Shown here: in pieces, positions 6,821 through 33,350 of the stretch | Layout of the letters: every line of letters begins with the position of its first letter | Position numbering within the stretch: position 1 is the first letter of the stretch | From: Planctomycetota bacterium | GTDB taxonomy: Bacteria; Planctomycetota; Phycisphaerae; Sedimentisphaerales; Anaerobacaceae | Length of the DNA stretch: 49,023 nt | Direction: 5' to 3' | NCBI GenBank assembly: GCA_022563885.1 | Contig: JADFMM010000012.1 | Span: 1-49,023 of the forward strand | Made by a program: the position numbers and the translations under genes | Notes under the pieces: generated by a model | The model's input: the letters and a program-made list of their open reading frames with translations, nothing else | What the model was told of the DNA's origin: nothing | The model's database searches: none

Positions 6821-7324
6821 ATGAGGGTCGTCTCGTCGCTGGCGCAATGGGTTTTTTGCTGTGCGGGCCTGCTCCTGGCCGTTGGCTGCGGGAAGCCGGC
6901 AACATCACGGAGCACGGAGCAAGCGCAAGGCGGGCTCGACCACATCTGCTTCTCACCCGCGAAGATCAGGGTCTCGCCCGTGACCGAGTTGATCATGCCG
7001 ACAAGCGCCGACGGGAGTGCCATCATCAGGGTCTGTGTTGTCCTGCTGGACCCCTTTGAGTCCTACCTCAAGGCCCCTGGTACCTTCCGTTTCGAACTCT
7101 ACGAACGGATTTTGCGCTCGGCCGTGCCCAAGGGCAAGCGGATCATCATGTGGCCCGACATGGATCTCAGGTCCGTTCATACCAACAACGAGTATTGGCA
7201 GGAGGTCTGGCACGCCTATGAGTTTGATCTGGAATTCGATCCGCAGAAGGACAAGAGTTACATCCTCCAAGTCACCTTCATCCTGCCTGAAAGAAAACGA
7301 CTAACCGACGACTATGCACTCTGA
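6821..7324 (+). CDS. Predicted lipoprotein of unknown function
   Basis: This 167-residue protein begins with a short signal peptide ending in the lipobox L-A-V-G-C, with Cys23 as the predicted lipidated residue. The mature part is not recognised. It looks like one beta-rich domain with several aromatic pairs (WPDMDL, YWQEVWHAYEFDLEFDP), which could suit a small extracytoplasmic binding fold, but this is only an impression. The gene follows ribBA by three bases, which suggests co-transcription without implying a riboflavin role. Confidence 0.7.
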   Translation: MRVVSSLAQWVFCCAGLLLAVGCGKPATSRSTEQAQGGLDHICFSPAKIRVSPVTELIMPTSADGSAIIRVCVVLLDPFESYLKAPGTFRFELYERILRSAVPKGKRIIMWPDMDLRSVHTNNEYWQEVWHAYEFDLEFDPQKDKSYILQVTFILPERKRLTDDYAL

Positions 7325-7361
7325 GCTCTCACTTCCCATGCAAATCGCCCAAATAATTCAG

Positions 7362-7391
7362 TTGACAAGTATCATTTATTTTGGGTAGTAT
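7362..7391 (+). promoter_or_regulatory. Strong sigma70-type promoter for the 7.4-8.0 kb RNA
   Basis: A consensus TTGACA at 7362-7367 and TAGTAT at 7386-7391 are separated by 18 bases. Transcription would begin near 7398. No open reading frame with a ribosome binding site follows; structured non-coding sequence does. Confidence 0.65.
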
Positions 7392-7397
7392 AGGCTC

Positions 7398-8047
7398 TTA
7401 AGCGCACAACGCGTTGAACACAAATGGATGCGCCTTCATCAAGAGTGGCACGAGAGAAGTAAGCCTGGGTAATGTAAATGCCCCCGATTCGTCGGGTGCG
7501 GGTTGCACACTCGGTGTGAATCCCTGTGTCGATTGATGAAGTTAGGGTGTTTCTGTCGGTGCACGAATACTCCGGAATCCTTATCCGGACCGAGGAAACG
7601 GCTCAGGGCCGGCTAGGGAATACGTGTACCAGAGGAGACAAGTGAAAGTGGTACAAGATCGACACCATTGATTTCGAGGGTAAAGCTGCCCGCTCGGGTC
7701 AACAGCGTCGTGTCAAGAGAATGGGTCTGTCTGAGGGAAATGAAACTCTGAGATAGGCGCTTCCACGGAGGCTGGTGATGCAAGGGGTCTTGATCGAGGT
7801 ACTCTCGCAGGGTTTCGCTGTCTACGCTCTTTAGTTGCCGAGAGCAAGGTAGGCAGTCTGTAGCTGGCCGGGTTACCTCAAGAATCCATCGAAATCGTGA
7901 GCTGTTGCTCGTGTATCCTCTGGACGCTTTGCGTAGGTTTCTGAAGGCCCGGGGTGGTGATTCACCCCATCAACAAGGAACCCAAACAGCTCGTTCAAAA
8001 AACAAAGAAGGCCCTTGCTGCCCTTACAGCAGGGGCCTTCTTTAATT
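7398..8047 (+). ncRNA. Candidate large structured non-coding RNA (about 650 nt), family unknown
   Basis: The stretch lacks a credible gene on either strand but has a promoter in front and an intrinsic terminator at its end. Many nested complementary segments are visible. GCGCA (7402) pairs with TGCGC (7429). CTTCATCAA (7434-7442) pairs perfectly with TTGATGAAG (7533-7541). Between them lie a CCCGA-TTCG-TCGGG tetraloop hairpin and CACAC-TCG-GTGTG. Further on are TCCGG/CCGGA (about 7571-7590), a GTACCA/TGGTAC stem (7625-7653), GACAC/GTGTC (about 7660-7714), GCTCT/AGAGC (about 7826-7845), and GGGGTG/CACCCC (about 7951-7968). I found no tmRNA tag frame or CCA end, and no paired RNase P signature segments. 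OLE, ROOL, GOLLD and omega-RNA-like classes could not be tested. Confidence 0.6.
8004..8043. terminator. Intrinsic terminator, probably bidirectional
   Basis: The 17-bp stem has one G-U wobble. Its arms are at 8004-8020 (beginning AAAGAAGGCCC) and 8027-8043, around the loop CCCTTA. Runs of A on the left and T on the right let it act in both directions. It would end the structured RNA (+) and the long operon ending in pcrA (-). The pcrA stop codon lies inside the right arm. Confidence 0.85.
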
Positions 8048-31761: not shown

Positions 31762-31816
31762 GGCCAGTGGCGGTATCGCAACGAGGGCTGCGGGCCCGAG
31801 TTTCCCGAACCCAGGG

Positions 31817-31996
31817 AATACGTTCGAGCGCTTCAGCGGGTTACTCTCAGACCGCAGATCCATCGAAGCTTGGGTCTATCTGTACAACTGGCCCACGGAC
31901 GCCCGCGAGTTGATTCCCTCTGGAGATTTCCTGGTGGACCGAACGGATGTGCGACATGACCAGAGTCGTCGGGGCTGGCTCGTGACTTTAGTTTGA
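31817..31996 (+). pseudogene. Gene remnant, possibly the C-terminal end of a gamma-glutamylcyclotransferase-like protein
   Basis: An open stretch reads AWVYLYNWPTDARELIPSGDFL near 31865-31930. This resembles the end of gamma-glutamylcyclotransferase/AIG2 proteins (Y-N-x-P then IPSGD). No start, ribosome binding site or N-terminal domain is present. It overlaps nothing conserved and is followed by other remnants. Confidence 0.35.
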
Positions 31997-32044
31997 AATA
32001 GGTGTCATTAATTTTCCATTGTGAATGCTAAAAAACGCTAACGC

Positions 32045-32315
32045 CGTGTTCTGATCATTCTTGCCATGGGTCTGGTGTTGTTGGCCGCTGTACTGGCAAA
32101 ACCGTTGAGTCACCTTCTTTACACCGTGTCCCGGGATGCCAATGGGCTAGAGGACCTGCCGCCAGACTACATGGACGACGCGAGCCGGTTGAATCTAACC
32201 AAGATAGGATCCCCCAGAGCTGTTTAAGAATCATTTCTACCTAAAGTACGGAAAGCCGGCCGAACCGACGGAAGCGGCCGGGCCACAATCAGAGAAGAGC
32301 GATGCTAGACGGTGA
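32045..32315 (+). pseudogene. Frameshifted remnant of a small membrane-anchored protein
   Basis: Frame one begins with a hydrophobic segment, MGLVLLAAVLAKPLSHLLY (from 32066), continues LPPDYMDDASRLNLTKI and stops at 32225-32227. Near 32208 a second frame continues with DPPELFKNHFYLKYGKPAEP up to 32315. The join looks like a frameshift in a once longer protein. The DDASRLN block is reminiscent of the N-terminus of some FAD-linked oxidases, but that is a weak recollection. Confidence 0.4.
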
Positions 32316-32328
32316 CTTCCACCGAATC

Positions 32329-32581
32329 ATCCGCTCAGATTTGGGTTGGCTTGGATTGGGTCGTGATCGATTGAGCGAAACCGGAGGCGTAGCTGTTCGG
32401 AGCCTGTCCCGAGCGAAGCCGAGGGATCCGGATTGCTTATGATTCTTTTTGCTGATAGCGCAGCCAGTTTTGCTACTAAGGAAGCCGCTGTTTTCGCGAT
32501 TGAGGAACGGCCAAAGACGACCTGTAGATGAGATGGAGAATCGGTAAGTTATTGATTTGCCCGTCCTTAGGAGCCGCGCAT
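32329..32581. repeat. Family B repeat, copy 2, degraded and interrupted
   Basis: It shares CGCTCAGATTTG, ATTGAGCGAAACC, CGCGATTGAG and GATGAGATG-type blocks with the element at 25921-26102, in the same order and orientation. About 70 unrelated bases are inserted in the middle (roughly 32398-32470). It ends with AGGAGCCGCGCAT (32569-32581), equal to the terminal repeat of copy 1. Confidence 0.6.
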
Positions 32582-32700
32582 GGCGATTCTCCCGTTTCAC
32601 AGGCGCTTGAAGTGTCGGCCAGACCCCGATAAGATGAGCTGGGTCCGGGGCCTTCTACACGCAGGCACCCCAGCGCCTTGGGTGATATTTGCAAGTTCTT

Positions 32701-32773
32701 TATTACCTGGATCTTGTGAATTCTGATCAATGGACTCATAATCCATTGGTCAAAGAGTCGCACCCTTCTGAGC
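32701..32773 (+). pseudogene. Relic of an elongator tRNA-Met (CAU)
   Basis: The sequence fits cloverleaf spacing. The D stem is GATC/GATC with an 11-base loop. The anticodon stem ATGGA/TCCAT is perfect around the loop CTCATAA (anticodon CAT at 32737-32739), and a variable loop TGGTC follows. The T stem keeps only three of five pairs, the T loop reads GTCGCAC, and the acceptor stem is not paired. It is therefore not a working tRNA. Confidence 0.4.
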
Positions 32774-32910
32774 GCACGTTTGATTCGTGTCAAATGACGG
32801 TCGCCCTATCACTGACAGGCGGTGGGATCGTTTTGAGAGTCCTGGAGTCCGAGTACTACAGACCCGTTAAACATCAGCACTTAGAAAACCAAGGTGTATG
32901 ACAGGAAGCC

Positions 32911-33261
32911 ATGACAGACATTCGATGGGAACAACGATTTGAAAATCTCGACCGGGCCTTCAATCCACCGGAACAAGGCGTAGAACTCCATGCCCAGCAT
33001 GATCTGTCAGATCTGGAGAAAGAAGGGATTATCCAGCGATTCGAATACACCTTCGAATTAGCCTGGTAAACACTCAAGGACTATCTGGACTATACGGGTA
33101 TTGTTTTAGAACAAATAACCCCACGAGCCGTCATCAAGGCAGCCTTTAACGCCAAGATCATCGCAGACGGGCAAGCCTGGATCGACCTGTTGTCCCATAA
33201 GCATCCGCCCGCCAAGGAGCACATTGAAACTCACGGACGGGTGCTATTTCAACGACAATAG
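32911..33261 (+). pseudogene. Broken nucleotidyltransferase substrate-binding (HI0074/HepT-like) gene
   Basis: The frame reads TDIRWEQRFENLDRAF, SDLEKEGIIQRFEYTFELAW, then an in-frame TAA (33067-33069), and resumes TLKDYLDYTGIVLEQITPRAVIKAAFNAKIIADGQAWIDLL up to a TAG at 33259-33261. Intact relatives have Lys after the Trp, so one base change made the stop. The last part (SHKHPPAKEHIETH) no longer follows the family pattern, so the end is also damaged. In intact systems this protein pairs with a minimal nucleotidyltransferase, often as a HepT/MNT toxin-antitoxin pair. No partner gene is present here. A family C repeat starts four bases after the stop. Confidence 0.8.
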
Positions 33262-33264
33262 CCG

Positions 33265-33350
33265 AGGTTCTGTCTGCCAGATCGATCTGGCTTCCCCTCG
33301 GGTCCGGGCCTCAGGGTCGAAGACGAGCGGCTTATTTTCAGACAGAGCCT
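33265..33350. repeat. MITE-like element, family C, copy 2 (short)
   Basis: The ends are AGGTTCTGTCTG (33265-33276) and CAGACAGAGCCT (33339-33350), complementary at 11 of 12 positions. It shares ATCTGGCTTC near the left end and TTTT-AGACAGAGCC-like sequence at the right end with the copy at 22795-22954. Confidence 0.6.

What the first reader, a model, noticed from the sequence alone, without database searches (positions are those of the whole stretch)
7362..8047. Orphan large structured RNA with its own promoter and terminator
About 650 nt without a credible gene are framed by TTGACA-N18-TAGTAT and a 17-bp intrinsic terminator. The interior contains at least ten complementary segments, including a long-range perfect 9-bp helix (7434-7442 with 7533-7541) that encloses local hairpins. 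I found no tmRNA, RNase P, SRP or known riboswitch signature. Long structured bacterial RNAs are few (OLE, ROOL, GOLLD, group II introns, omega RNAs), so a new class or a divergent member is possible.
Basis: seen in the sequence. Interest (0 to 1): 0.8.

Follow-up and report, generated by a model that had tools for sequence, protein, structure and literature searches.

The report
Orphan large structured RNA gene
Between two ordinary housekeeping genes of an uncultured Planctomycetota bacterium lies a ~575-nucleotide stretch that makes no protein but appears to encode a large folded RNA; it is shared, structure and all, with one sister species and matches no catalogued RNA family, so it looks like a real but very narrowly distributed new RNA of unknown job.

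Summary
7362-8047 contains TTGACA-N18-TAGTAT, no credible gene, a 17-pair hairpin terminator (8004-8043) and the exact 9-bp helix named. A homologue exists in one sister Planctomycetota species (91% identical, same place between a ribBA-lipoprotein pair and convergent pcrA). Conservation starts sharply at 7424, where independent folds of both species also place a helix closing the 5' and 3' ends; the RNA body is therefore about 7424-7997. It changes more slowly (8.4%) than fourfold-degenerate sites of neighbouring genes (14.7%) and its upstream spacer (31%), with no codon periodicity. The sense strand folds better than shuffles in both species (z -3.3 each), the antisense does not (-0.9); the sister's substitutions preserve 129 of 195 helix pairs against about 50 for random mutants (0 of 778 as good). 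Rfam gives no match; RNase P RNA and tmRNA lie elsewhere in the genome. No third homologue was found in the order, sampled class and phylum, phages, plasmids or viral contigs. Best reading: a stand-alone structured non-coding RNA gene, of the GOLLD/ROOL/OLE kind in type but not by homology. Transcription and function are unproven; covariation cannot be tested with two sequences.

The parts
7362..7391 (+). sigma-70-like promoter TTGACA-N18-TAGTAT; predicted start of transcription near 7398
   Evidence: partly conserved in the sister species (TTGATA-N19-TAATAT)
7392..7423 (+). unconserved 5' leader
   Evidence: 39% divergent between the two species
7424..7997 (+). conserved structured RNA body
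   Evidence: sense-strand fold z -3.3 in both species, antisense -0.9; 8.4% divergence against 14.7% at fourfold sites
7425..7430 (+). 5' arm of the terminal closing helix (UGGAUG)
   Evidence: paired with 7992-7997 in the minimum-energy folds of both species
7434..7541 (+). 5' domain: helix 7434-7442/7533-7541, helix 7446-7452/7525-7531, inner hairpins including a UUCG loop at 7488-7491
   Evidence: pair probabilities 0.96/0.94 and 0.88/0.90
7578..7619 (+). hairpin 7578-7594/7602-7619
   Evidence: p 0.60/0.89 in the two species
7670..7896 (+). central domain closed by GAUUUCGA (7670-7677) with UCGAAAUC (7889-7896), containing arm 7688-7788 and arm 7796-7879
   Evidence: closing helix p 0.99/1.00; arm 7725-7737/7746-7758 p 1.00/1.00; no substitution in 7765-7804
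7936..7982 (+). 3' domain hairpin 7936-7942/7976-7982 with inner stem 7951-7956/7963-7968
   Evidence: inner stem p 1.00/1.00, outer 0.66/0.98
7992..7997 (+). 3' arm of the terminal closing helix (CGUUCA)
8004..8043 (.). bidirectional intrinsic terminator, shared with convergent pcrA

Best explanation
A stand-alone, non-coding structured RNA gene. Inferred steps: transcription starts near 7398 from its own promoter and ends at the bidirectional terminator at 8004-8043. Supported by computation: the transcript body (about 7424-7997) folds into a closed multi-domain structure (terminal helix, 5' domain, hairpin, large central domain, 3' hairpin), and that fold has been kept by selection since two species diverged. 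Inferred: it acts in trans as a folded RNA, most likely as a protein-binding scaffold or self-assembling RNA, rather than as a riboswitch, antisense RNA or messenger, since no gene follows it on its strand, it overlaps no gene and it shows no coding signal. Its partner and its task are not identified. The confidence given is for the stand-alone structured RNA; the scaffold or assembly role is a guess by analogy (about 0.3).
For: One homologue, 91% identical over the body and syntenic. Slower change than fourfold sites (48/573 against 56/382, Fisher p 0.003) and than the adjacent spacer (30/98, p 2e-8). Sharp 5' conservation boundary at 7424 that coincides with the terminal helix. Strand-specific folding signal; stretches of neighbouring genes of similar length score z about -1 to +2. 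Two-sequence consensus energy z -5.4. Structure kept far better than in random mutants of the same spectrum (129 common pairs against 48 +/- 22, 0 of 400) or in mutants that keep the clustering of changes (51 +/- 22, 0 of 378). No codon periodicity. No Rfam match.
Against: No pair among 191 changes on both sides, so there is no covariation proof. No expression data. Only two sequences known; of the pairs of the single-sequence fold, 17 are broken by the sister's substitutions (null 21.5 +/- 3, not significant alone). The promoter is ordinary and only partly conserved, and no terminator separates the upstream lipoprotein gene from the RNA, so it could also be made by read-through.
Confidence: 0.75

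Rival explanations
1. A long structured 3' UTR of the pgsA-ribBA-lipoprotein operon, co-transcribed and perhaps processed, acting on the stability or translation of that mRNA.
For: No terminator-like site between the lipoprotein stop (7324) and 8004; same strand, 37 nt from stop to the promoter-like site.
Against: The ribBA-lipoprotein pair is kept in most of the family without this RNA; a promoter-like site precedes the RNA; the conserved body starts 100 nt after the stop, with an unconserved spacer between.
Confidence: 0.13
2. A messenger for one or more very short peptides, e.g. GGAGG (7767-7771) followed by ATG at 7778 and 18 codons.
For: A good Shine-Dalgarno spacing, inside the stretch with no substitutions 7765-7804.
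Against: In the sister species the frame stops after 10 codons; substitutions are even over the three frames; much of that stretch belongs to a long paired arm.
Confidence: 0.04
3. A decaying remnant of a mobile or known RNA (group II intron, pseudogene) that happens to fold.
For: Very narrow distribution; sits where gene order differs from all relatives examined.
Against: No Rfam match at E up to 10 for the body; slower than neutral change, one single-base indel in 574 nt, and preserved structure; no flanking direct repeats.
Confidence: 0.06

Closest known systems
GOLLD and ROOL RNAs (Rfam RF01998, RF03087; accessions from memory)
   Same: Large (hundreds of nt), multi-domain, non-coding, apparently transcribed alone; unknown function
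   Different: No covariance-model match; GOLLD and ROOL lie in phages and prophages, often near tRNA islands (PMC12286853), whereas this lies between chromosomal housekeeping genes with no tRNA in the window
OLE RNA (Rfam RF01071; accession from memory)
   Same: About 600 nt, chromosomal, single copy, extensive secondary structure
   Different: No covariance-model match; Planctomycetota only so far; no recognisable partner-protein gene beside it (neighbours: ribBA, a lipoprotein with no Pfam family, pcrA)
Group II intron RNA
   Same: Similar length to ORF-less introns
   Different: No match to any group II family of Rfam, no intron protein, own promoter and terminator, no interrupted host gene
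RNase P RNA and tmRNA
   Same: Long stable bacterial RNAs
   Different: Both are encoded elsewhere in this genome

Membership tests
GOLLD / ROOL / OLE | match to the family's covariance model | tested here: not met
   No Rfam match at gathering score; at E up to 10 none for the window body and only two unrelated weak hits for the sister
GOLLD / ROOL | phage or prophage context, often near tRNA islands (PMC12286853) | tested here: not met
   No tRNA in the 49-kb window; no homologue in phages or viral contigs; neighbours are housekeeping genes
GOLLD / ROOL / OLE | homo-oligomeric assembly | not testable with these tools
   Needs cryo-EM or native mass measurement
Group II intron | domain V and intron core | tested here: not met
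   No match to any Rfam group II family
RNase P RNA | match to RF00010 | tested here: not met
   No match here; the genome's copy is on another contig, 226 bits
tmRNA | tRNA-like end and match to RF00023 | tested here: not met
   ARAGORN none; the genome's copy is on another contig, 168 bits
structured non-coding RNA (general kind) | conserved fold with compensatory changes | tested here: inconclusive
   Fold conserved beyond chance but no two-sided change in two sequences
structured non-coding RNA (general kind) | existence of the transcript | not testable with these tools
   No expression data on hand

The most novel reading that the evidence does not exclude
The founding pair of a new class of large ornate bacterial RNA, chromosomal and unrelated to GOLLD, ROOL or OLE, that works as a folded machine or assembly (RNA-only oligomer, protein scaffold or ribozyme).
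Probability: 0.35. Interest if true: 0.75.

Novelty: new member of a known kind. Interest (0 to 1): 0.5.

Why it matters
Large structured bacterial RNAs without a known role are few, and discovery by covariation needs many homologues, so families confined to a handful of species are invisible to the usual pipelines. If this one is expressed, it shows that such orphan RNAs exist in poorly sampled phyla and can be recognised from a single genome plus one relative.

Tried and rejected
Known RNA families by Rfam, strict and lax, both species; the weak hits all sit on or reach into the terminator hairpin. Homologue searches by BLAST in 89 family, 161 order, 397 class and 392 phylum genomes, by covariance models of two domains in 161 order (R2) and 392 phylum (R1) genomes, by 18-30-base patterns in viral contigs and one 18-mer in genome contigs, and in phages and plasmids: only the sister species. 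Short 23-34 nt matches in class genomes and the 18-mer hits in genome contigs were checked with both models; apart from the sister species itself none was convincing; the best, L068, scored 19 bits at a site already selected by BLAST. Positional homologues beside the lipoprotein gene or pcrA in relatives: none. Coding hypothesis: no periodicity. Flanking direct repeats of an insertion: none.

Full report
Observation. The interval was read directly. TTGACA and TAGTAT lie 18 bases apart at 7362-7391; the terminator is a 17-pair stem, 8004-8020 with 8027-8043, bidirectional, its far end overlapping the pcrA stop codon. No ORF in the interval exceeds 62 aa. The 9-bp helix 7434-7442/7533-7541 exists and is predicted with p 0.96.

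Taxon and homologue. BLAST among relatives found one homologue, 91% identical, in a sister species of the same genus, in the same place: ribBA, lipoprotein, RNA, convergent pcrA. There is one copy in the window's own genome.

Selection. Over 7424-7997 the two species differ at 48 of 573 aligned bases, with one single-base gap. Fourfold-degenerate third positions of pgsA, ribBA and the lipoprotein gene differ at 56 of 382 (Fisher p 0.003); the spacer, promoter and leader 7325-7423 differ at 30 of 98 (p 2e-8). The stretch 7765-7804 has no change. Substitutions are even over the three frames, so the constraint is not that of a protein.

Structure. The body folds better than its dinucleotide shuffles on the sense strand in the window (z -3.33, 0 of 100) and in the sister (z -3.28, 0 of 100), not on the antisense strand (z -0.88, 20 of 100); stretches of ribBA, pcrA and the lipoprotein gene give z between about -1 and +2. 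The strand preference points to RNA rather than to a DNA element. The two-sequence consensus has z -5.4 against column shuffles. Independent minimum-energy folds of the two species share a terminal helix (7425-7430 with 7992-7997) exactly at the conservation boundary. Taking the window's fold as reference, the sister keeps 129 of 195 pairs; mutants with the same substitution spectrum at random positions keep 48 +/- 22 (0 of 400 as many), and mutants that keep the clustering of changes keep 51 +/- 22 (0 of 378). There is no pair with changes on both sides, so classical covariation evidence is lacking.

Identity. Rfam 15 gives nothing at gathering scores over the window and nothing at E up to 10 for the body without its terminator. 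RNase P RNA and tmRNA are on other contigs.

Distribution. No further homologue was found by BLAST in family, order, class and phylum samples, by covariance models, or by search of phages, plasmids, viral contigs and genome contigs. The ribBA-lipoprotein pair is kept in most family genomes, but without this RNA downstream, and pcrA is followed directly by open frames in the relatives examined. The RNA thus sits at a place where gene order is particular to these two species; whether it arrived by transfer or arose there cannot be told. Metagenome assemblies could not be searched.

Mechanism. Supported by computation: a conserved, non-coding, strand-specific fold with defined ends. Inferred: transcription from its own promoter, and action in trans as a folded RNA, probably with a protein partner or by self-assembly, by analogy with GOLLD, ROOL and OLE, which form homo-oligomers (PMC12286853). 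The analogy is of kind, not of descent: model match and (for GOLLD and ROOL) genomic context were tested and not met. The main rival is a structured 3' UTR of the ribBA operon, since no terminator was found between the lipoprotein gene and the RNA.

Noticed in passing
window 6821-7324: Lipoprotein-like gene with no Pfam family, found in 76 of 89 genomes of the family and lying directly downstream of ribBA in nearly all loci examined; function unknown.
   Followed up: partly
window 8004-8044: Bidirectional terminator whose stem overlaps the stop codon of pcrA; on the + strand its T-run is weak (TTCTTTAATT) in the window and stronger in the sister species.
   Followed up: partly
window 7767-7834: GGAGG-N6-ATG with an 18-codon frame inside the least changed part of the RNA; the frame stops after 10 codons in the sister species.
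   Followed up: partly
window 7571-7589: Two invariant self-complementary UCCGGA hexamers, a possible contact for RNA dimers or simply a hairpin.
   Followed up: no
window 31800-33350: About 1.5 kb with only short ORFs on both strands; folding is not better than shuffles.
   Followed up: partly
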